Source of the DNA: Pseudolabrys sp.
GTDB lineage: Bacteria; Pseudomonadota; Alphaproteobacteria; Rhizobiales; Xanthobacteraceae
Length of the DNA: 64,000 nt
NCBI GenBank assembly: GCA_026125895.1
Contig: JAHCKG010000002.1
Location: forward strand, 280,034 to 344,033
Direction of reading: 5' to 3'
The translations under genes and the position numbers were made by a program. The notes below the pieces were generated by a model, which worked only from the letters and a program-made list of their open reading frames with translations, ran no database searches and had not been told where the DNA came from. This document shows positions 1 through 8,434 of this stretch, piece after piece (position 1 is the stretch's first letter; each line of letters opens with the position of its first letter).

Positions 1-2
1 GG

Positions 3-788
3 AAAACCGGCCGCGGTGTTGCCCTGGTTCCGACCATGGGCGCGCTCCATGCCGGCCACCTCAAGCTGGTGGCCGAGGCGAGGAAGCGCGCGCGCCGCGT
101 CGTGGTGTCGATCTTCGTTAACCCCACCCAGTTCGCGCCGACCGAAGACTTCGGCAGCTACCCGCGGACCTTCGACGCCGACATGACGGCGCTCGCCGCG
201 CTCAAGGTCGATGCGGTGTGGGCGCCGACGGCGGCCGAGATGTACCCGGAAGGCTTCGCCACCCGGGTGGCGCCGGAGGGCGCGGCCCTGGCCGGGCTCG
301 AGGACAAGTTCCGCCCGCACTTCTTCGGCGGCGTCGCCACCGTGGTGACCAAGCTGTTCACGCAGGTTCAGCCGGACTTCGCCATGTTCGGCCAGAAGGA
401 CTACCAGCAGCTTCGCGTCGTCACGCAGATGGCGAGCGATCTCGATCTGCCGCTCAAGGTCGTCGGTATTCCGACGGTGCGCGAGAAGGATGGCCTCGCC
501 CTCTCGTCGCGCAATGTCTATTTGTCGGAGGCCGAACGCGCCATCGCGCCGACGCTCTATCGCGTGCTCAAGGCGAGCGCCCAACGCATCAAGCGCGGCG
601 AGCCGATCGAGATGGTGATGGAGGAAGGCGCCGGCGAGATCCGTCACGCCGGCTTCGCGCTCGATTATCTCGAAGCGCGTCATGCCTTGAACCTCAAGCC
701 AATCGCCTCTGTGAAGGACGGTCCCATTCGTTTGCTCGTGGCGGCGAAGATCGGCAAGACGCGATTGATCGATAATCTGGGGGTGTGA
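3..788 (+). CDS. panC: Pantothenate synthetase, 5' end outside window
   Basis: Pantoate-beta-alanine ligase, the ATP-dependent last step of pantothenate (vitamin B5, CoA precursor) synthesis in the cytoplasm. The frame is open from base 3 and already reads the family's [11 protein letters not shown] segment, whose first motif residues lie upstream of the ATG at 36, so that ATG is internal and the true start is before the window. Further family motifs: FGQKDYQQL (about residue 130) and LSSRNVYL (about 170). About 20 N-terminal residues are missing. The C-terminus is complete. Confidence is high. Confidence 0.96.
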
Positions 789-806
789 GGCACGCTCTCT
801 CTCCCG

Positions 807-933
807 CCCTCCCCCTTGTGGGGAGGGTCGACCGCCGAGCGAAGCGAGTGCGGTCGGGGTGGGGGTCGATGACGACCGCGATCACCCCCACCCCGCTCGC
901 TATCGCTCGCGACCCTCCCCACAAGGGGGAGGG
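807..933. repeat. Palindromic intergenic repeat behind panC
   Basis: Two 24-bp arms, 807-830 and 910-933, are exact reverse complements (core CCCTCCCCCTTGTGGGGAG). Between them is a second, imperfect inverted pair around the words GAGCGAAGCGAG and CTCGCTATCGCTCG. The whole could fold as one long hairpin in RNA and may act as a terminator-like 3' end for panC. Repeats of this look are common between genes in Bradyrhizobium-like genomes (general knowledge). Confidence 0.8.
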
Positions 934-1403
934 TAAAGTGTGATCGCCGCTGCGTTCACATTTCTCAGGATTCAATTTTCAAACAGCCCGGTCCTAAACA
1001 GCCAACGCTCCGCTGGCCCTGTTCTTTGTGCGGCGCGGGTCACGCCGTATTCCCTTTCCCCTCCGGACATGCCGAGGGAATGGAGCGCCGCGAAGCGCCC
1101 AAAGTGTGCACCTTGCGGTGCACGGCCCCTCCTTGCGATCGGAGAAGGCCTGCGCCCCGCGGCGCTCCATCGCGGTGTCTTGACGACGCCGGGCCGCGCT
1201 TCTGGCGGCTGATCCATCTTGCGACGGGTAGCGCTCACCATCAGCAAGCTCCTTGCAGCCGGTCCTAGTGCCGGCGGGCGGAGCCCCGGCGCCGCCCGAG
1301 CGCCTGGGATGCGTAATCCCCAGGCCCGCGGGCACCGCATCCTTTCCCACTGACAAGACGCCTCATGACAGCGCCCCCGGCCGGATCGGACGGAGCAACG
1401 TTA
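934..1403. other. Long intergenic stretch, no supported gene
   Basis: About 470 bases with open frames on both strands but no convincing start or RBS. The composition is very arginine/cysteine-codon rich in every frame, as in the small conserved AMERRG-type 'hypothetical proteins' annotated from repeated sequence in Bradyrhizobium relatives; the minus-strand frame does encode the string AMERRG near 1155-1175. I read it as a dispersed repeat rather than a gene. It ends at the left flank of the transposon-like element. Confidence 0.4.
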
Positions 1404-1411
1404 TCCTATTG
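1404..1411. repeat. Candidate target site duplication, left copy
   Basis: TCCTATTG, identical to 4069-4076 at the other side of the transposon-like element. Length 8 matches IS1595-family behaviour. The distances from the 8-mers to the inverted repeats differ (13 and 28 bases), so chance identity is not excluded. Confidence 0.5.
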
Positions 1412-1416
1412 TAGGA

Positions 1417-1465
1417 ATAAGTGCGCACTTATATACTTGACAAAAGCGCGCAGATGTTTAAATTC
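1417..1465 (+). promoter_or_regulatory. Left end palindrome and probable transposase promoter
   Basis: 1417-1432 is a perfect 16-bp palindrome, ATAAGTGC-GCACTTAT. Five bases later TTGACA (1437-1442) is an exact -35 consensus, and an AT-rich TTTAAATT follows at 1457-1464 at a spacing near 16. The palindrome overlaps the inverted repeat, so transposase binding to its own end could also repress this promoter (inference). Confidence 0.55.
1425..1446. repeat. Left terminal inverted repeat
   Basis: Reads GCACTTATATACTT then GACAAAAG. Matches the reverse complement of 4019-4040 in 20 of 22 positions, differing only at positions 9 and 15. Confidence 0.8.
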
Positions 1466-1484
1466 ACGGTCATAGGAGCTTCCG

Positions 1485-2420
1485 ATGACCGCAGTGTTCC
1501 AAAACCCCATCTTTCAGGACGAAACCAAGGCACGTGAGGCTCTGGAAGCCGTGCGCTGGCCTGAAGGCCCCTATTGCCCTCACTGCGGCAACTCGGACCC
1601 CGAAAAGATCGCCAAAATCGAAGGCAAAAAGCAGTCTCACCGCCCCGGCCTGTACTACTGCAACGAGTGCAAGGGCCAGTTCACGGTTACGGTCGGGACC
1701 GTCTTTGAAAAGTCCAAGGTCCCTCTAACCAAGTGGTGGATGGCCGCTCACCTGATGAACTCAGGCAAGAACGGCGTTTCCGCCCACGAAATTCACCGGA
1801 CTATCGGCGTTACCTACAAGACCGCTTGGTTCATGATGCATCGCCTTCGCGAAGCCATGAGCGAGGTCGCCTCTGCCCCCATGGGCGGCACTGGCGGTCC
1901 TGTTCAAGCCGACGAAACCTACTATGGCGGCACGTCCAAGCGCGCCAAAGGCTACGTCAAAGGCTTTGGCGGCAAGTCTAGCGTTGTCGCGCTTGTTGAA
2001 CCTGCCACCGGCCAAGCCCGCGCCTTCGTTATGAAGGGCACCAGCGCCCACCAAGTTTCCGAAATCCTGTTTACGAACGTTGTCCGCAAGGCCACCACGC
2101 TCGTGACCGATGAAAGCCGCCTCTACACGAAAGCCGGTACTGAATTTGCGGACCATCAAACCGTGCTGCACACCGCGAAGAAATACGTCAACGAGGCAGG
2201 CTTTACGACGAACCACGTTGAAAACTTCTTTGGCGTCCTCAAGCGCGGTATGCGCGGCACCTATACGCATTGCGACGAAAAGCATTTACAGCGTTACGTT
2301 GCGGAATTCCAATTCCGTTATAACAACCGCTCCGGCCTTGGCGTTAGCGATGGGGAACGGACGGCGAAGGCTCTCAAGGGCATTGAGGGCAAGCGCCTGA
2401 CGTACCGGCCGACTAACTGA
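1485..2420 (+). CDS. IS1595-family (ISXO2-like) transposase
   Basis: DDE-type transposase, 311 residues, full length for the family. The N-terminal zinc ribbon shows CPHCG (about 32-36) and CNEC (about 59-62). The ISXO2-like catalytic domain follows with VQADETYYGG (about 139), VTDES (about 207) and NHVENFFGVLKRGMRGTY (about 243-260), the last carrying the family's Asn and Lys/Glu positions. No stop or frameshift, so it may be active. The start at 1485 has AGGAG at 1474-1478. The TTGACA promoter lies inside the element end. It stands alone on plus ahead of the passenger genes. Confidence 0.93.
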   Translation: MTAVFQNPIFQDETKAREALEAVRWPEGPYCPHCGNSDPEKIAKIEGKKQSHRPGLYYCNECKGQFTVTVGTVFEKSKVPLTKWWMAAHLMNSGKNGVSAHEIHRTIGVTYKTAWFMMHRLREAMSEVASAPMGGTGGPVQADETYYGGTSKRAKGYVKGFGGKSSVVALVEPATGQARAFVMKGTSAHQVSEILFTNVVRKATTLVTDESRLYTKAGTEFADHQTVLHTAKKYVNEAGFTTNHVENFFGVLKRGMRGTYTHCDEKHLQRYVAEFQFRYNNRSGLGVSDGERTAKALKGIEGKRLTYRPTN

Positions 2421-2473
2421 AGCCAAGACTCTTAGGCAGAAGGCCGCTAAATTCCTCCGGTGGAGGAAACGCC

Positions 2474-2748
2474 ATGCCGAAAAAACCTAGCATTCTAAAT
2501 GAACGCAGACCGCTCCCGCCGCTATCAACCGAAACGAACTACTTGGCGGCGGACTTTGAATATCTGGAGCATTTCGGTCCGCAGCTAACCGGATCAAAAG
2601 CCATTCTCCGTCTGAATTTGAAGAATGGACCACAATTGATGTGCCATGTAGCGACGATCAACTGCAGCACCTAATGATTTCTCTTTTCGAGAGTTACCCA
2701 CCCCGTGCCCTTGCTTACCTGAAAGAGCGCTGGCCGAGGGAGACTTAA
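2474..2748 (+). pseudogene. Unknown passenger ORF with a probable frameshift
   Basis: An excellent RBS (GGAGG at 2463-2467) precedes the ATG at 2474. The first frame reads MPKKPSILNERRPLPPLSTE and runs to a stop at 2672, but its last 20 residues look non-coding. In the frame starting one base earlier (open from 2560) the sequence ends convincingly, with a stretch like EEWTTIDVP followed by YPPRALAYLKERWPRET and a stop at 2746. One indel near 2605-2625 would join them into a protein of about 90 residues. I do not recognise the family. It could be a decayed passenger gene, a sequencing error or programmed shifting. Confidence 0.55.
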
Positions 2749-2751
2749 GTT

Positions 2752-2889
2752 TCATGTCTTTTTCTTTCGGGAAGCGGTGACCTTTTTCTTCTTCCCGCCA
2801 GCCTTCAATTCATCATGGGGCTTTGGCTTCATACGTACAAGAGCGCCCATTAGGCGCTTGGTAGATTCGATGTCTTTGTCTTTTCCCAT
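2752..2889 (-). CDS. 45-residue Lys-rich microprotein, passenger operon gene 4
   Basis: Starts MGKDKDIESTKRLMGALVRM and ends in a Lys/Arg-rich tail containing GGKKKK and SRKKKT. Its ATG follows directly on the TAA stop of the DUF2283-like gene (TAAATGG), so translation is probably coupled. No membrane segment or signal peptide. The basic tail suggests nucleic-acid or protein binding, but function is unknown. Last gene of a four-gene minus operon; its stop faces the stop of the frameshifted plus ORF three bases away. Confidence 0.6.
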   Translation of the reverse strand: MGKDKDIESTKRLMGALVRMKPKPHDELKAGGKKKKVTASRKKKT

Positions 2890-3162
2890 TTAGTCCCTGA
2901 CATGATCCAAGATGGTCTCTACCTGCGCCGCAGGAACCTCCAGCCTTTCGGAGATTTCAGGGACCAACGTTGACCGGCGCTGGTACCAATAATGTGCGAA
3001 GTCGATGATTGTCACACCAACTGGATGGCCTAGTCTATCGTAACGCCAAACCACACCGGGGCGATCTTCGGCGCCCCGGCCGGCGGACTCGCCGGGGGCG
3101 GAAATATAAAGAACGTCGTTATCTGCGTCGTAAACGACTTCAAACCTTTTAAGATTTGTCAT
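2890..3162 (-). CDS. DUF2283-like protein, passenger operon gene 3
   Basis: 90 residues. The core FEVVYDADNDVLYISAPGE and the later VGVTIIDFAHYW follow the DUF2283 pattern: a beta strand with 'YD...DVLYI', then 'G..v.l.i.G.ei..iei'. The start at 3162 is chosen because GTGGAG stands 8 bases before it and the domain begins just after; the frame continues 24 codons upstream, but that part reads inside the preceding gene. DUF2283 proteins often sit beside small partners such as DUF4258 and have been proposed as antitoxin-like; that role here is inference. It overlaps the upstream gene by 14 bases. Confidence 0.7.
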   Translation of the reverse strand: MTNLKRFEVVYDADNDVLYISAPGESAGRGAEDRPGVVWRYDRLGHPVGVTIIDFAHYWYQRRSTLVPEISERLEVPAAQVETILDHVRD

Positions 3163-3535
3163 CTTGATTACTCCACAGCAGGACGCCATGCGACGTAGAA
3201 TCGTTGAAATAGGAACTCCGAACCCAACCGACATTGCTGGAACTATCGAAACCGACCGCTACTCGAAGCGGGTTCCCGGAAGTACTTGTCGTGTCATGGT
3301 CAACGAACACTAAAGAGTCCAGCGGCCTCGTCGCGCTTCTATAGACGGATGTGGGGTACTGTAAGGCGCGACTGATAGAATCTGCGGTCCCGAGGAAGGG
3401 ATAGGTCGTAAATTCGGGGTGGCTGCCCTCGATATGAGAAACCGTATCGTCTGCCAGTAGAAAAGTGTCCAGCCTCGACAACGCTGTCGTCGTCAGCGCA
3501 GTTGTCCTGATGAGAGTACCAGGGCGCTGGCCCAT
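3149..3535 (-). CDS. Unknown 128-residue protein, passenger operon gene 2
   Basis: Begins MGQRPGTLIRTTALTTTALS. A very strong RBS, AAGGAGAGG, lies five bases before the ATG. The sequence is rich in Ser/Thr/Asp with no Lys until the end, no membrane segment and no Cys. The repeated pattern of short beta-like stretches (TFLLADDTVSHIEGS, PLDSLVFVDHD, GNPLRVAVGFDSS) suggests an all-beta fold. I recognise no family. It is 13 bases behind gene 1, and its end overlaps the start of the DUF2283-like gene. Confidence 0.65.
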   Translation of the reverse strand: MGQRPGTLIRTTALTTTALSRLDTFLLADDTVSHIEGSHPEFTTYPFLGTADSISRALQYPTSVYRSATRPLDSLVFVDHDTTSTSGNPLRVAVGFDSSSNVGWVRSSYFNDSTSHGVLLWSNQDDKS

Positions 3536-3548
3536 GATCCTCTCCTTG

Positions 3549-3914
3549 TTATCTCTTAAGAGATTCGTTGATTTCTTGAACGTATTTCGCCCACTCAGCG
3601 TCTGTCACCTTGAGAACAGATCGAAGCTCAGCAATCTTGCCGGCCAGCCAAGTTGAAAAATTGATCGCAGAAGAGAGATCCATGGTCACATTGACCTCCA
3701 GCTCCCTCACGATGACCTGCCCCACCGGCTCCGGCGACTCCTTTGCCGAGCCATCAGGCCCAACAGTAAGGACGGACGACAGAGGACCAGCGCCTCTCTC
3801 ATTGTAAAATGAGAATTGAAGGCGCCCTCGGGGCGTCACACCGCCGTAAGCGCCGTCGGCAGCAACAACGCGATAAAAGTTGCTCTGCTCGTATTCAACC
3901 TTAAGCTCCGCCAT
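3549..3914 (-). CDS. Unknown 121-residue protein, passenger operon gene 1
   Basis: Starts MAELKVEYEQSNFYRVVAAD, preceded by a GAGGGG RBS; a second in-frame start ten codons upstream (3944) is less likely. The pattern 'YGGVTPRGRLQFSFYNERG ... VIVRELEVNVTMD ... AINFSTWLAGKIAEL' resembles uncharacterised proteins that read as a beta sandwich followed by a helix, similar in outline to DUF3467, but I cannot assign it. First gene of the minus passenger operon; the right inverted repeat lies about 100 bases upstream and could hold its promoter. Confidence 0.65.
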   Translation of the reverse strand: MAELKVEYEQSNFYRVVAADGAYGGVTPRGRLQFSFYNERGAGPLSSVLTVGPDGSAKESPEPVGQVIVRELEVNVTMDLSSAINFSTWLAGKIAELRSVLKVTDAEWAKYVQEINESLKR

Positions 3915-4018
3915 GGCGTCCCCTCTATTTGCCCGGGACACCACTTTCAGCAGAATTCACCTTTCTCTGCAACTTTCTAACGGCGCTTCGGCAGCCCTCG
4001 TCATTAGGATTTAAAACT

Positions 4019-4040
4019 CTTTTGTTAAGTACATAAGTGC
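4019..4040. repeat. Right terminal inverted repeat
   Basis: Reverse complement of the left repeat with two mismatches. Just outside it, AATAAGTG recurs at 4042-4049, giving two direct copies of the AATAAGTG word at this end, whereas the left end has the two copies inverted. Confidence 0.78.
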
Positions 4041-4068
4041 GAATAAGTGTCAAGGACTAAATGCTAGG

Positions 4069-4076
4069 TCCTATTG
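4069..4076. repeat. Candidate target site duplication, right copy
   Basis: TCCTATTG, the second copy. It contains the stop codon (CTA on plus, TAG on minus) of the OmpA-family gene, so insertion here would leave that protein unchanged. Confidence 0.5.
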
Positions 4077-5135
4077 CTCGACCAGCTCGACGCGGCGGTT
4101 CTTGGCCCTGCCCTCGTCGGAACGGTTGGTCGCGACCGGCGACATCGGCCCCAGCCCGCGCGGCACCAGGCGCTTGGCATCGATGCCGTGGCGCGCGGCC
4201 AGCGCCTTGACCACCGCGTCGGCGCGGCGGTTCGACAGGCTGACGTTGTAGTCGAGCGTCCCCTTGTTGTCGGTATGGCCGATCACGAAGGCGCGCAGGG
4301 CCGGGTTGGCCTTGAGGAACTTGGCCATCTCGGCCAGTTGCGGCTCGGATTCCGGCTTGATGTCGGCTTTGTCGAAGTCGAACAGGATACCGTAGAACAC
4401 CGCCTTGCCCTGACTGGCGATATCGCCGGTGATCTGCTCGGCGCTGACCATCTCCATGCGCTTTTCCATGGCACGCGGCTCGATGACCTCGACCAGCACA
4501 CCGACGCGGTCGCGCAAGGCCTCCGAATAGGTGCCGAACGAACCGCCCGTGTGGGTGCCGCCATAGACGGCGACATAGGTGTCGCCCGCCGGGCCGCTCT
4601 TCTTGAACAACGTGTAGCGCGGGTCGAGCAGTTGATCGAACGAGGCATCGATCAGCAGCCGGCGCAACCGCTCGTAGTTCGGGCCGACCACCTTGGTCTC
4701 CGGCCGGTCCCAGCGATATTTCAGGACGACGAAGCTCTCGCCGCAATCATTCCCCGCGCAGCGATAGACCGGTTCGAAGCCGCGTGCGGCAACGCTGTCG
4801 GTAAAGTTCGTCGTCACCTCCAGCGACGAACGGCCGGCCGGCGCCACATAGATCATCCGCGTCACCTTGCCTTGGGCGGTCACCATGGCCGAGAACTGTT
4901 TGTCGGACGCGTAGCTCTTGCCCTGCGCCGGGCCGCTCGGCAGCTTGAGTTCGTCGAAGGCCTTTTCCGTTTTGGCGAGCAGCGCCGAGCCGGTGTAGCG
5001 GCCGACCAGCGGGTGATCGCCGGCACTGGGCAGGTCTTTCGACAAAAACGCCATCACCCGCTCATCGGGCGCGGCCTGTACAGCAAGCGGCAGAAGGGTG
5101 GCGAGGGTGACGGCCAGCGTCAGCGAGCGCAGCAT
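4071..5135 (-). CDS. OmpA-family outer membrane protein with DUF4892-like N-terminal domain
   Basis: 354 residues. Signal peptide (MLRSLTLAVTLATLLPLAVQA), then a DUF4892-like domain beginning around HPLVGRYTGSALLAKTEKAF, then a peptidoglycan-binding OmpA C-terminal domain from about residue 245: FDFDKADIKPES, GHTDNKGTLDYN and LSNRRADAVV, ending KNRRVELVEQ. Likely tethers the outer membrane to the cell wall. The start is supported by GGAG eight bases upstream. The transposon-like element ends directly at its stop codon. Confidence 0.88.
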   Translation of the reverse strand: MLRSLTLAVTLATLLPLAVQAAPDERVMAFLSKDLPSAGDHPLVGRYTGSALLAKTEKAFDELKLPSGPAQGKSYASDKQFSAMVTAQGKVTRMIYVAPAGRSSLEVTTNFTDSVAARGFEPVYRCAGNDCGESFVVLKYRWDRPETKVVGPNYERLRRLLIDASFDQLLDPRYTLFKKSGPAGDTYVAVYGGTHTGGSFGTYSEALRDRVGVLVEVIEPRAMEKRMEMVSAEQITGDIASQGKAVFYGILFDFDKADIKPESEPQLAEMAKFLKANPALRAFVIGHTDNKGTLDYNVSLSNRRADAVVKALAARHGIDAKRLVPRGLGPMSPVATNRSDEGRAKNRRVELVEQ

Positions 5136-5252
5136 CGCGGTTTCTCCGGAGCTTGGGAGGGATTCCGAAAGCCCCGGAAGAATTCCACAGCGGCTGCGCC
5201 GTGAATGTGACGTCCATCACGCGGCGGCGGCCTGCCAGCCGGTTATCGCGGC

Positions 5253-5693
5253 CTATAACAAGCCAAGCTGCATCAGTTCGCGCCGCATCTCTTCGGGCAT
5301 GTTCACGGCGCCCTTGGCCGCCTTGGTGAGGTCGCGCGGCGCTTCCTTGGCATCGAGGTAGCGCCAGCCCTGGAAGGCCGAGCGCGGGCGCGGCTCGACG
5401 GGCACGCATTTGGGATCGAGCACCAGCTTGCAGCGGTGGATGCCGTCCTTGTCGGTGAACGGCCGGATATCGAGAATCACCTCGCGGCACAGGATCTGGC
5501 CCTTGATCACCCAGTAGATCGAGCCGCCGTCCTTCAGTTCGTCGGCGCGCTTAGGCACCATGCGCGTCGTATGAATGCGCTCCGGCTTCTTCACGCCGCG
5601 CTTCTTCTGCGCCTTGATCTTGTCGTCGATCCAGCCTTGCAGGTCGGCGATGCTATCGGTGCCGACCGAGAGTTTGATCAAATGCAGCGGCAT
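5253..5693 (-). CDS. DUF1489 family protein
   Basis: 146 residues, starting MPLHLIKLSVG. The order of conserved blocks (HTTRMVPKR, GSIYWVIKG, ILCREVILDIRPF, then PRSAFQGWRYL) is that of DUF1489, an alphaproteobacterial family without known function. Soluble, no signal. It lies nine bases downstream of the stop of the membrane protein gene at 5702-6283 on the same strand, so they probably form an operon. Confidence 0.85.
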   Translation of the reverse strand: MPLHLIKLSVGTDSIADLQGWIDDKIKAQKKRGVKKPERIHTTRMVPKRADELKDGGSIYWVIKGQILCREVILDIRPFTDKDGIHRCKLVLDPKCVPVEPRPRSAFQGWRYLDAKEAPRDLTKAAKGAVNMPEEMRRELMQLGLL

Positions 5694-5701
5694 GTCAGTC
5701 G

Positions 5702-6283
5702 TCAAATCCCGGAAACGAATTTCGCCATGATGACAATGATGGCAATCTGCATGACGCCCTGCGCGGCGACGGCGTAGAAGTATCCGCTCATCAGGCGGCC
5801 GATCTTGGCGCGGTCCGGCTCGGCCTTCTGCAATTCGAAACAGACGCGCAAATTGGTCGGCAGCAGATAGCCGAGGCCCTGGATCGTCATCAATGTGACC
5901 AGGATAAGCGCGCCATAAACCCAGGCGATCTGCGGCCACTCCAGCGCGGTAAAGCCGAGCTCGACGGCCAGAAACCAGCCGGCCGTGCCGGTGATGATCG
6001 ACAAGGTCGGCATGAGGAACAAGGTGCGCGGCGTCAGCTTGAGCAGGATCTGCTTGCGCACGGAGATGTCGAGCGTGCGCATGATGGGCCCGAGCACAAA
6101 GCCCATGAACAGATCGATGCCGGTCCACAGCACGCCGGCCATCACATGCACCCAGTTGAGGAACCAGATGTTACGGCTGACGATGGCGGCAACCATGACG
6201 GCGAGCGCCACGGCGACATACCAAAGATAATGCAGCCGGATCAGTGAAGGCGGATGGTCCGGAGCGATGGCGACGGTCGTCAT
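5702..6283 (-). CDS. Integral membrane protein, possibly DUF2269/CopD-like
   Basis: 193 residues with about five predicted membrane segments, at roughly 20-42, 46-66, 88-110, 122-142 and 168-190. The second contains WVHVMAGVLWTGIDLF, a His/Trp pattern seen in DUF2269/CopD-type membrane proteins that bind haem or copper. A GGGGGAA RBS precedes the ATG. First gene of a two-gene operon with the DUF1489 gene. The family call is tentative; the membrane nature is clear. Confidence 0.75.
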   Translation of the reverse strand: MTTVAIAPDHPPSLIRLHYLWYVAVALAVMVAAIVSRNIWFLNWVHVMAGVLWTGIDLFMGFVLGPIMRTLDISVRKQILLKLTPRTLFLMPTLSIITGTAGWFLAVELGFTALEWPQIAWVYGALILVTLMTIQGLGYLLPTNLRVCFELQKAEPDRAKIGRLMSGYFYAVAAQGVMQIAIIVIMAKFVSGI

Positions 6284-6359
6284 GTGCTCATTCCCCCGCG
6301 CTGGCCGCGCCTGCTATCTCTATCACATTCATATCTTCGTCGATCCAAATCCGAACCGC

Positions 6360-6475
6360 CATCCTGAGGTGCGACCTCCGCGAAAGCGGAGGGAGCCTCG
6401 AAGGATGAACGCCCGGGGTTCACGGGCCGTCGCCCTTCGAGGCTCACGCTGCGCGTGAGCACCTCAGGGTGACGG
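6360..6475. repeat. Palindromic repeat, type A
   Basis: Outer arms TCCTGAGGTGC (6362-6372) and GCACCTCAGGG (6459-6469); inner arms GAGCCTCGAAGG and CCCTTCGAGGCTC. The same outer and inner arms, with a different middle, recur at 63832-63948. Mobile or REP-like intergenic repeat, between mccA and the membrane protein gene. Confidence 0.85.
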
Positions 6476-6481
6476 AAAAAA

Positions 6482-8434
6482 TCATCCGCCCTCACCCGGC
6501 GCGATCACCATCACCTTGGCGCCCTCGGCGATCTGGCTGCCTGCCGTGGCGGCGATCTCGGCGACCGTGCCGTCGATCGATGCGGTGAGCGTGTGCTCCA
6601 TCTTCATCGCCTCGATGATGGCAAGTCGCTGGCCGCGCGCCACCGCAGCGCCCTGCTCCACCAGCACGGCCAGCACCTTGCCGTGCATCGGCGCACGCAC
6701 CAGCCCGCCGCCGCCATTGCCGGCGCCCTCCTCGAGGCTCAGATCGCGCAAGGAGAGTTTGGTCTGACGGCCGCGGCGCAGCACAAAGACCGCCTCCGGG
6801 GTGGCGATCGCGGTGGCATCGTCGGCCGCACTTGAGCCTTCGACGCGCAACACAGCCTCGCCGTCCTCATAGGCCACCTCGGCGTTGAGGTTGTGACCCT
6901 CGGCGGTGAGCGGCACGATCAGGCGCCGCGTCCCAGAGAGCTGGAAGCCGTCATCGGCGTCCCACGGCGAGTCGAAACTGGCGGTGCGTTCGCTGAGCAG
7001 TTCGCGCTCGCGCTCGATCAGTGCCAGCGCGCCGAAGGCGACCGCCGCGTGGTCGAGCGGCTGCGGCCCGGCGCCGAGCTCGCTCAAATGCGCGTCGATG
7101 AAGCCGGTGTCGAAGTCACCGTTGCGGAAATCCGGCGCGCGGGCGAGCTGGCTGAGAAAGCCGGCATTGCTGCGCGGGCCGATGACGACGGTGGCGTCGA
7201 GCGCATCGGCGAGGATGTCGAGCGCCTCGCCGCGCGTTGGCGCATGGGCAATGAGCTTGGCGATCATCGGATCGTAGAACGGCGTCACCTCGTCGCCGGC
7301 CTCGACGCCGGTATCGACACGCAGTCCGTCCGCCTTGGGGAAGTCGAGCGCGATCAGCCGGCCGGTGGACGGCAGGAACGACTTCTCCGGATCCTCGGCA
7401 TAAAGCCGCGCCTCGACGGCGTGGCCTTCGAGCGGCACCTGATCCTGCTTCAGCGGCAGCGCCTCGCCATTGGCGATGCGGAACTGCCACTCGACGAGGT
7501 CGAGGCCGGTGATCGCCTCGGTCACCGGATGCTCGACCTGCAGGCGCGTGTTCATTTCCATGAACCAGAAGCCGCCGCTCTTGAGACCACCGGCGCCGTC
7601 GGCGATGAACTCGATGGTGCCGGCGCCGACATAGGAGGCCGCCTTCGCCGCGGCGACGGCCGCCGCGCCCATCTCGGCGCGCAAGGCGGCGCTCATGCCC
7701 GGCGCGGGGGCTTCCTCGATCACCTTCTGATGGCGGCGCTGCAAGGAGCAGTCGCGCTCGTTGAGATGGATGGCGTTGCCGTGGCTGTCGGCGAAGACCT
7801 GCATCTCGATGTGGCGCGGCGCCGTGATGTATTTCTCGATCAGCACGCGGGCGTCGCCGAAGGCGTTCTGCGCCTCGCGCATCGCGCCTTCCAGCGCGTC
7901 GTCGAAATCGGCGTGCTTGTCGACACGGCGCATGCCCTTGCCGCCGCCGCCGGCCACCGCCTTGATCAGCACCGGGTAGCCGATCTCGTAAGCCTTGCGC
8001 TTGAGGAACGGCGGGTCCTGCTTGTCGCCATGATAGCCCGGCACGACCGGCACGCCGGCCTTCTCCATCAGCGCCTTGGCGCGGTCCTTGAGTCCCATGG
8101 CCTCGATCGCAGCGGGCGGCGGACCGACGAAGACGATGCCGGCCTCAGCGCAGGCCTTGGCGAAGGCGGTGTTCTCCGACAGGAAGCCGTAGCCGGGGTG
8201 GATGCACTCGGCCTTCGCGGCCTTGGCGGCGGCGATGATGTTGTCGATGACGAGGTAGCTCTGCGCCGCCGGCGCCGGGCCGATCAGATGCGCCTCGTCG
8301 GCGAGCTTGACGTGCAGCGCCTGCGCGTCGGCCTGCGAATGGACGGCGATGGTGCGCATGCCCATCCGCTTGGCGGTGCGCATGATGCGGGCTGCGATTT
8401 CGCCGCGATTGGCGATGAGAACGGATTTGAACAT
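6482..8434 (-). CDS. mccA: 3-methylcrotonyl-CoA carboxylase, biotin-carrying alpha subunit
   Basis: 650 residues. Biotin carboxylase domain at 1 to about 450: MFKSVLIANRGEIAARI, the ATP-grasp glycine loop KAVAGGGGKGMR and EMNTRLQVEHPVTE. A linker follows, then a C-terminal biotinyl domain with the biotin lysine in EAMKMEH (about 615). It carboxylates biotin with ATP and bicarbonate for MccB in leucine breakdown. Choice over pccA rests on the second, more PccA-like paralogue at 53284 and on mccB at 16333; unusually, mccB lies 8 kb away. RBS weak. Confidence 0.85.
   Translation of the reverse strand: MFKSVLIANRGEIAARIMRTAKRMGMRTIAVHSQADAQALHVKLADEAHLIGPAPAAQSYLVIDNIIAAAKAAKAECIHPGYGFLSENTAFAKACAEAGIVFVGPPPAAIEAMGLKDRAKALMEKAGVPVVPGYHGDKQDPPFLKRKAYEIGYPVLIKAVAGGGGKGMRRVDKHADFDDALEGAMREAQNAFGDARVLIEKYITAPRHIEMQVFADSHGNAIHLNERDCSLQRRHQKVIEEAPAPGMSAALRAEMGAAAVAAAKAASYVGAGTIEFIADGAGGLKSGGFWFMEMNTRLQVEHPVTEAITGLDLVEWQFRIANGEALPLKQDQVPLEGHAVEARLYAEDPEKSFLPSTGRLIALDFPKADGLRVDTGVEAGDEVTPFYDPMIAKLIAHAPTRGEALDILADALDATVVIGPRSNAGFLSQLARAPDFRNGDFDTGFIDAHLSELGAGPQPLDHAAVAFGALALIERERELLSERTASFDSPWDADDGFQLSGTRRLIVPLTAEGHNLNAEVAYEDGEAVLRVEGSSAADDATAIATPEAVFVLRRGRQTKLSLRDLSLEEGAGNGGGGLVRAPMHGKVLAVLVEQGAAVARGQRLAIIEAMKMEHTLTASIDGTVAEIAATAGSQIAEGAKVMVIAPGEGG

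What the first reader, a model, noticed from the sequence alone, without database searches (positions are those of the whole stretch)
1404..4076. IS1595-family element with passenger operon, intact transposase and possible 8-bp target duplication
Seen: ISXO2-like transposase; inverted ends 1425-1446 and 4019-4040 matching in 20 of 22 positions; identical TCCTATTG just outside both; more AT-rich interior; five non-transposase ORFs inside. Known: the IS1595 family makes 8-bp duplications and includes members with passenger genes. Inference: this is a mobile carrier of a small gene system, inserted harmlessly behind an OmpA gene stop.
Basis: partly seen in the sequence, partly recalled or inferred. 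Interest (0 to 1): 0.75.

Follow-up and report, generated by a model that had tools for sequence, protein, structure and literature searches.

The report
Small transposon carrying swappable toxin-like genes
A compact jumping gene in a soil bacterium carries a small gene cassette, its relatives carry different cassettes that often look like toxins or anti-phage genes, and almost all share one unexplained tiny gene.

Summary
The element is real: an IS1595-family transposon at 1424-4041 with 23-bp inverted repeats (21/23), an open 311-aa transposase and five other ORFs. Empty copies of the target, a ~378-bp dispersed repeat, occur in the same genome. Twenty-one complete elements, this one included, were delimited. 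Eleven were picked by their ends alone, and 10 of those have perfect 8-bp duplications; the other ten were listed because they have one. Transposases 91% identical carry different cargo. Cargo includes AbiL-like pairs, proteins with an HEPN-type RNxxxH motif and, in the wider clade, PIN, ParE and Panacea genes. A small basic protein, 'KPH' (2752-2889), is clear in 17 of 21 and variant in 3. In relatives its start codon usually overlaps the chosen cargo start head to head (CATG; 13 of 17). Two of the window's cargo genes, P128 and DUF2283, recur as a neighbouring pair without a transposase. I read the cargo as a toxin-antitoxin-like module; toxicity and KPH's role are inferred. IS1595 elements with passengers are known; this architecture is a new variant.

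The parts
1424..4041 (.). whole IS1595-family cargo transposon (2618 bp)
   Evidence: paired 23-bp inverted repeats with an abutting 8-bp duplication; paralogous empty sites in the same genome
1424..1446 (+). left inverted repeat CGCACTTATATACTTGACAAAAG; its TTGACA is the -35 of a promoter-like site for the transposase
   Evidence: promoter-like site 1437-1464 (10/12), where 2 sites were found against a shuffle mean of 1.2
4019..4041 (-). right inverted repeat (21/23 to the left one)
1416..1423 (+). target-site duplication AATAAGTG, left copy
4042..4049 (+). target-site duplication AATAAGTG, right copy
1485..2420 (+). IS1595 transposase, 311 aa, no internal stop
   Evidence: PF12762, PF12760; NF033547 over cut-off
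2474..2674 (+). 66-aa ORF of unknown origin; no family match
2752..2889 (-). KPH: 45-aa basic protein (TKRLMGALVRMKPKPHDELK), convergent to the transposase; signature gene of the lineage
   Evidence: DNA 76-87% identical in three relatives; HMM hits; codon-position test
2890..3162 (-). 90-aa DUF2283 protein, putative antitoxin; its stop codon directly precedes the KPH start (start at 3162 chosen by me; one search lists the frame open to 3234)
   Evidence: PF10049 3.3e-8; DUF2283 follows DUF4258-like genes in 4 of 14 parsed loci
3149..3535 (-). P128, 128 aa, putative toxin; overlaps the DUF2283 start by 14 bp
   Evidence: homologue beside DUF2283 in L114; no family match over cut-off; structure not resolved
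3549..3914 (-). P121, 121 aa, first gene of the cargo operon (start at 3914 chosen by me; one search lists 3944)
   Evidence: homologues in other small operons
1056..1423 (+). left part of the ~378-bp dispersed repeat used as target
4050..4059 (+). last 10 bp of the target repeat (TCAAGGACTA)
   Evidence: alignment across the joined junction in L138-L142
1404..1411 (+). TCCTATTG, left; part of the target repeat, not a duplication
4069..4076 (+). TCCTATTG, right; overlaps the end of the OmpA-like gene, not a duplication
4071..5135 (-). host OmpA-like gene, uninterrupted; stop codon 21 bp beyond the right duplication
   Evidence: PF00691 7.6e-22

Best explanation
Window 1424-4041 is a cargo-bearing IS1595-family transposon (a 'transporter IS'). 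Shown: paired 23-bp ends, 8-bp AATAAGTG duplication, open transposase, insertion 10 bp from the end of a dispersed intergenic repeat, one copy in this assembly, and relatives with the same kind of ends, transposase group and KPH gene but different cargo. Inferred: the transposase binds both ends, moves the element and makes the 8-bp staggered cut; the left end supplies the -35 of the transposase promoter; cargo is exchanged between the KPH start and the right end. The window's cargo P121-P128-DUF2283 most likely works as a toxin-antitoxin-like module, with P128 the toxin (probably an RNase), DUF2283 the neutralising partner and P121 an accessory; it could stabilise the element or protect the host. 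KPH, translated next to whatever cargo is present, most likely restrains or co-regulates it.
For: Ends and duplication: 10 of 11 elements picked by their ends alone have a perfect 8-bp duplication. A transposase-anchored search that required an 8-bp repeat found ends of >=16/20 in 20 of 34 cases against 2 of 340 mismatched pairings. Empty target. Cargo exchange: transposases 91% identical (L072/L084), 85% (L034/L081) and 87% over 197 aa (L063/L085) with different cargo. Cargo classes: AbiLi with DUF3226 in L034 (PADLOC 3.5e-46; Pfam 6e-14) and L050 (1.7e-47; DUF3226); RNx3H in 10 of 18 chosen cargo proteins against a shuffle mean of 0.3, maximum 3; SocA/Panacea in L117 and ParE in L134; PIN in L111 and L112. 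KPH: clear in 17 of 21, variant in 3; 8 of 8 hits in the genus lie beside the transposase. P128-DUF2283 as a separable pair: L114. DUF2283 next to DUF4258; DUF4258 is listed as a BECR-fold toxin family, function unknown, in PMC11980606 (passages).
Against: P128 has no family match over a cut-off, hhalign to four DUF4258 sequences gave 0.2% probability, and its structure model is unusable (pLDDT 35.6). The first gene of the L114 operon is not detectably related to P121, so the three-gene set is not shown to be conserved. The HEPN reading of other cargo got only sub-threshold Pfam hits and no HEPN match by Foldseek (best E 0.27). KPH matched no family and has no measured function. The L071 cargo protein scanned had no family; cargo of L036, L119 and others was not scanned. 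Most relatives are metagenome bins, so copy number and completeness are uncertain.
Confidence: 0.64

Rival explanations
1. A cargo-bearing IS1595 transposon whose passengers are a random, fast-changing sample of small host genes with no common function; toxin-like labels reflect what is common in mobile DNA.
For: Most cargo proteins scanned have no Pfam family at threshold; a ClpP-like protein (L042), DUF3800 (L131) and an unclassified protein (L071) are also carried; IS1595 elements with unrelated passengers are known (PMC3129680 and PMC8496243, passages). I made no census of cargo against matched genomic controls.
Against: RNx3H enrichment, AbiL twice, PIN, ParE and Panacea in a modest sample, and the constant company of KPH.
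Confidence: 0.2
2. KPH belongs to the transposition module (a regulator or accessory of the transposase) and has nothing to do with the cargo; it stays while cargo changes because transposition needs it. This can be true together with the main reading of the cargo.
For: KPH follows the transposase, not any one cargo class: 8 of 8 genus hits and 7 of 9 order hits have a transposase in the locus.
Against: Its start codon directly joins or overlaps the cargo gene in most elements, and a related IS1595 transposase (28% identity) sits in a short 1072-bp element without it (L133).
Confidence: 0.35
3. One reading: the same transposon with TCCTATTG as the target duplication.
For: TCCTATTG occurs at 1404 and 4069.
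Against: It lies 12 and 27 bp from the inverted repeats, is present in kindred form in empty paralogues, and elements picked by their ends duplicate the bases that abut the ends (10 of 11).
Confidence: 0.01
4. A decayed genomic patch that only looks like an element: unrelated genes between chance inverted repeats.
For: Only one copy in the assembly; an ORF after the transposase (2474-2748) looks interrupted.
Against: Nineteen further elements with these ends and perfect duplications (ten of them listed because of the duplication), open transposase, empty target copies.
Confidence: 0.02

Closest known systems
IS1595 family 'transporter ISs' (Siguier, Gagnevin and Chandler 2009; paper not held; seen only as cited in passages of PMC3129680, PMC8496243, PMC5704250)
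   Same: IS1595 transposase, inverted repeats, 8-bp duplication (family trait as stated in the finding and recalled), passenger genes inside the ends.
   Different: A conserved KPH gene, repeated cargo exchange next to its start codon, toxin-like or abortive-infection cargo, and a preference for one dispersed repeat. I saw none of these in the listings and passages; the 2009 paper itself could not be read.
Tn3-family transposons with toxin-antitoxin pairs (PMC7157771; outline, abstract and section 14 read)
   Same: Varied toxin-antitoxin pairs beside the transposition genes; section headings there include ParE, PIN, HEPN and exchange of modules.
   Different: Different transposase family, with resolvase and res site; there most pairs sit beside the resolvase, here the cargo sits between KPH and the far end.
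Tn7-like transposons with defence cargo (PMC8649781; passages)
   Same: Cargo enriched in toxin-antitoxin and defence genes, including PIN, ParE and HEPN.
   Different: Larger elements with several transposition proteins (recalled); here one transposase and one small module in about 2-4 kb.
IS1595-type elements tISCpe8 and MTnSag1 (passages in PMC5704250)
   Same: IS1595-family transposase with a passenger.
   Different: Described there as integrative and mobilizable elements from Clostridium and Streptococcus; the family hits of the window's ORFs show no mobilisation gene.

Membership tests
IS1595 insertion-sequence family | IS1595-type transposase with zinc ribbon and DDE domain | tested here: met
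   PF12762, PF12760 over cut-off; NF033547 189.5 bits, cut-off 75
IS1595 insertion-sequence family | terminal inverted repeats | tested here: met
   21 of 23
IS1595 insertion-sequence family | 8-bp target duplication | tested here: met
   AATAAGTG; 10 of 11 elements picked by their ends alone; empty paralogues
IS1595 insertion-sequence family | subgroup by ISfinder | not testable with these tools
   ISfinder not on hand
Transporter IS | passenger genes unrelated to transposition inside the ends | tested here: met
   P121, P128, DUF2283 inside the ends; P128-DUF2283 pair without transposase in its 3.3-kb locus L114
Type II toxin-antitoxin module (window cargo) | small adjacent or overlapping gene pair | tested here: met
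   P128 and DUF2283 overlap by 14 bp if DUF2283 starts at 3162; pair kept in L114
Type II toxin-antitoxin module (window cargo) | toxin of a known fold (BECR/DUF4258) | tested here: inconclusive
   no match, hhalign 0.2% with only 2 and 4 sequences, model pLDDT 35.6
Type II toxin-antitoxin module (window cargo) | toxicity and neutralisation | not testable with these tools
   needs expression tests
HEPN superfamily (cargo of relatives) | Rx4-6H motif, mostly N, D or H after R (PMC3710099, passages) | tested here: met
   RNx3H in 10 of 18 chosen proteins, shuffle mean 0.3; looser Rx4H 16 of 18, shuffle mean 6.9, maximum 13
HEPN superfamily (cargo of relatives) | HEPN profile or fold match | tested here: inconclusive
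   PF05168 21.9 bits against a cut-off of 22 for L072; helical model of L078, pLDDT 65.9; Foldseek no HEPN, best E 0.27
AbiL abortive-infection system (L034, L050) | AbiLi ATPase plus DUF3226 partner, adjacent | tested here: met
   L034; L050

The most novel reading that the evidence does not exclude
A whole lineage of IS1595 transposons is a dedicated vehicle for exchangeable RNase-toxin and abortive-infection modules, with KPH as its universal control protein. In most relatives KPH and cargo are head-to-head genes whose start codons share the four bases CATG, so each gene's leader must lie inside the other gene; expression of restrainer and effector would then be coupled by antisense overlap, a switch that any incoming cargo can plug into at the start codon.
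Probability: 0.3. Interest if true: 0.78.

Novelty: new variant of a known kind. Interest (0 to 1): 0.6.

Why it matters
It suggests a very small vehicle (about 2-4 kb, one transposase) that moves and swaps toxin-like and anti-phage modules between bacteria, beside the larger Tn3 and Tn7 cases. It also gives a handle for finding new modules: the genes between KPH and the right end. The KPH family and the CATG head-to-head arrangement are directly testable.

Tried and rejected
TCCTATTG as the duplication: rejected. KPH as a mere by-product of the opposite reading frame: rejected; changes fall on the third codon position of the KPH frame (first, second, third 222, 132, 578 in 11 T-type sequences; 57, 50, 148 in 6 F-type). 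The three-gene cargo as a conserved operon: an earlier count said that L114 holds all three; one search shows that its first gene is not detectably related to P121, so only P128 and DUF2283 are claimed, and the confidence was lowered from 0.66 to 0.64 for this. Rfam on 600-4300: three matches, all far under the gathering scores. tRNA in window 1-8000: none. Plasmid searches for KPH (L078 copy), P128, its L114 homologue and DUF2283, and a phage search for P128: no match; low-complexity filtering may hide KPH. Viral contigs for P128: 7 pattern matches, none confirmed. Structure of P128 alone: unusable. Foldseek of the HEPN-like model: general helical bundles, none under E 0.27. P128 against DUF4258 by hhalign: no support. 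Orthologous empty site: OmpA-like gene in none of the other 42 genus genomes at E <= 1e-60. A promoter in the right end: TTGAC or TTAAC kept in 24 of 37 right ends and 37 of 37 left ends, with mean -10 scores of 3.1 right, 3.8 left and 2.2 control, so it is well supported only on the left.
Full report
OBSERVATION. The window lies in G000, contig C12, in a draft assembly of 50 contigs with 82% completeness. Its genus group probably includes Pseudolabrys: two public contigs titled Pseudolabrys have the same lengths as contigs of genus members G032 and G022; other members bear other names. The inverted repeats are 1424-1446 and 4019-4041, 21 of 23 matching. The transposase at 1485-2420 is uninterrupted and passes the curated IS1595 cut-offs. 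The whole element has one copy in the assembly. Element GC is 54.0% against 66.3% and 64.0% on the two sides.

THE DUPLICATION. Comparison of relatives fixed the ends. One search examined 47 sources and gave 20 distinct complete elements, the window included, after leaving out second records of the same contig (L065, L069, L077, L082). In 19 of 20 the 8 bases directly outside the ends are identical; L070 has an offset, imperfect repeat. The rule of that script favours duplications: ten pairs with more mismatches in their ends (L033, L038, L039, L042, L046, L066, L071, L072, L078, L084) were listed only because 7 or more flanking bases agreed. Of the ten listed for their ends alone, 9 have 8 of 8. 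One more element, found by exact ends, spans the loci L083 and L075 with TATATATT on both sides, so the fair count is 10 of 11. In the window these bases are AATAAGTG. The region 1056-1423 plus 4050-4059 is a dispersed repeat: the 183-bp probe 1241-1423 finds 10 places in the own genome, the window's included, and five long copies (L138-L142) align past the joined junction to its last base, 10 bp beyond. The left TCCTATTG is part of that repeat, so it is not a duplication.

TARGET. Of 41 delimited elements (the 21 plus 20; L131 among them has ends of only 15/20), 13 including the window have this repeat within 500 bp, with its 3' end towards the element. Leaving out the window it is 12 of 12 in that orientation, 10 of them within 100 bp; several matches are short (25 to 50 bp). 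As a control, with the window left out and pieces under 300 bp dropped, 10 of 73 abutting 500-bp pieces hold the repeat against 2 of 227 pieces lying 1-3 kb away. The window, L031 and L048 (another end subtype) are inserted at the same place in the repeat. This is an insertion preference, not an obligate site: 28 of 41 elements show no repeat.

ARCHITECTURE OF THE LINEAGE. Each of the 21 elements has the transposase near one end; in L046, L073 and L085 its frame looks interrupted. Next comes KPH on the opposite strand: 16 of 20 by an HMM built from 10 of them (circular for those 10), one more by eye in L083/75, three divergent variants in L033 and L073 (HMM E 0.03 and 0.13) and L071 (by eye), and none recognised in L038. 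Codon-position counts show that KPH is a translated gene. In 43 genus genomes KPH occurs in 8, 8 of 8 beside the transposase; in 397 order genomes there are 9 hits in 8 genomes, 7 of 9 with a transposase in the roughly 3-kb locus. L095 and L097 had none.

THE START-CODON JUNCTION. In one search the cargo start was located for 20 elements, the partial element L036 included and the window and L034 left out: 3 on the minus strand and 17 on the plus strand. In 13 of the 17 the two start codons overlap as CATG; 11 were printed, and L066 and L067 follow together. L083/75 has ATG overlapping TTG, L031 is ambiguous, L073 is 55 bp apart, and L038 has no KPH. The cargo starts were chosen by me with this junction in view; the mechanical frames often begin further upstream, antisense to KPH. 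In support, related cargo pairs align from their first residues with these starts (L046/L085 and L078/L084). In the minus-strand cases KPH is the last gene of the cargo operon, as in the window, where the DUF2283 stop is followed at once by the KPH start. The junction therefore looks like the cargo exchange point; that is inference.

CARGO OF RELATIVES. Transposases 91% identical (L072, L084) carry different cargo; so do L034/L081 (85%) and L063/L085 (87% over 197 aa). Conversely L067/L081, 95% identical in transposase, share a cargo class at only about 27% identity over 108 aa. Recognised cargo: AbiLi with DUF3226 (L034, L050), ClpP-like (L042 by Pfam; L084 by eye), Panacea antitoxin domain (L117) and ParE (L134, with an N6 methylase), PIN (plasmid elements L111, L112), DUF3800 (L131). 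Only part of the cargo listed was scanned. For the motif count one protein was taken from each of 18 elements; the window, L034 and second cargo genes were left out. Ten of 18 have RNx3H against 0.3 expected by shuffling, the HEPN RNase motif as described in PMC3710099 (passages). Some of the 18 are related, so these are not independent events, and the fold was not confirmed. The short element L133, 28% identical in transposase, has no cargo.

THE WINDOW'S CARGO. The operon reads P121, P128, DUF2283, KPH on the minus strand. In L114 (genome G141) a P128 homologue (36-39%) overlaps a DUF2283 homologue (39%) with no IS1595 transposase in the 3.3-kb locus. A gene of similar size precedes them there, but it is not detectably related to P121. 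P121 relatives occur elsewhere: in L106 and L107 they head three-gene operons ending in a DUF7689 protein (L106 by Pfam; the L107 one is 37% identical to it). DUF2283 occurs in 21 of 297 order genomes. Of 21 loci, 14 could be parsed, the window and G141 among them, and 4 of the 14 have a DUF4258-like gene overlapping its start; 3 of those were scanned and hit PF14076 (1e-11, 3.4e-10, 5e-4, the last under the cut-off), two also BrnT under its cut-off. DUF4258 is listed among BECR-fold toxin families, function unknown (PMC11980606, passages). So DUF2283 plausibly neutralises toxins, and P128 plausibly takes the toxin's place; direct evidence for P128 is missing.

HOW IT PROBABLY WORKS. Shown by sequence: ends, duplication, transposase, a promoter-like site across the left end (TTGAC or TTAAC in 37 of 37 left ends but 24 of 37 right ends), cargo exchange, KPH conservation. 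Inferred: transposition, a toxin-antitoxin or abortive-infection role of the cargo, and KPH as restrainer or regulator. The insertion breaks no recognised gene: it lies between a gene that looks like panC (recalled from its sequence, not searched) and the OmpA-like gene, whose frame is intact.

NOVELTY. IS1595 elements with passenger genes are known (passages in PMC3129680, PMC8496243, PMC5704250); Tn3 and Tn7 elements with toxin-antitoxin cargo are known (PMC7157771 outline, abstract and one section; PMC8649781 passages). In the ten literature searches, of which I saw listings and a few passages, I saw no description of an IS1595 lineage with this small gene, its start-codon overlap or toxin-like cargo; that covers only the open-licence library. 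I rate it a new variant of a known kind.

Noticed in passing
window 1056-1423 and 4050-4059; L138-L146: A ~378-bp dispersed intergenic repeat, 10 places in the own genome by the 183-bp probe; it attracts IS1595 insertions on its 3' side in several genomes. Its nature is unknown.
   Followed up: partly
window 2474-2748, + strand: The 66-aa ORF and a following 35-aa ORF in another frame read like one interrupted small gene after the transposase; described only.
   Followed up: no
L067 and L081: Transposases 95% identical but cargo proteins only about 27% identical (108 aa): cargo either evolves very fast or is replaced by distant homologues.
   Followed up: no
L040, L063, L083/75: A ~100-aa protein with a TFRI motif accompanies HEPN-like cargo in three elements; no Pfam match for the L040 one.
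   Followed up: no
L118 (G353): Two IS1595 elements with different cargo side by side in opposite orientation, sharing the 8-bp repeat AATAAAGT/ACTTTATT, possibly a nested or composite unit.
   Followed up: no
L106, L107: Three-gene operons of a P121-like protein, an unknown protein and a DUF7689 protein; possible uncharacterised toxin-like system.
   Followed up: partly
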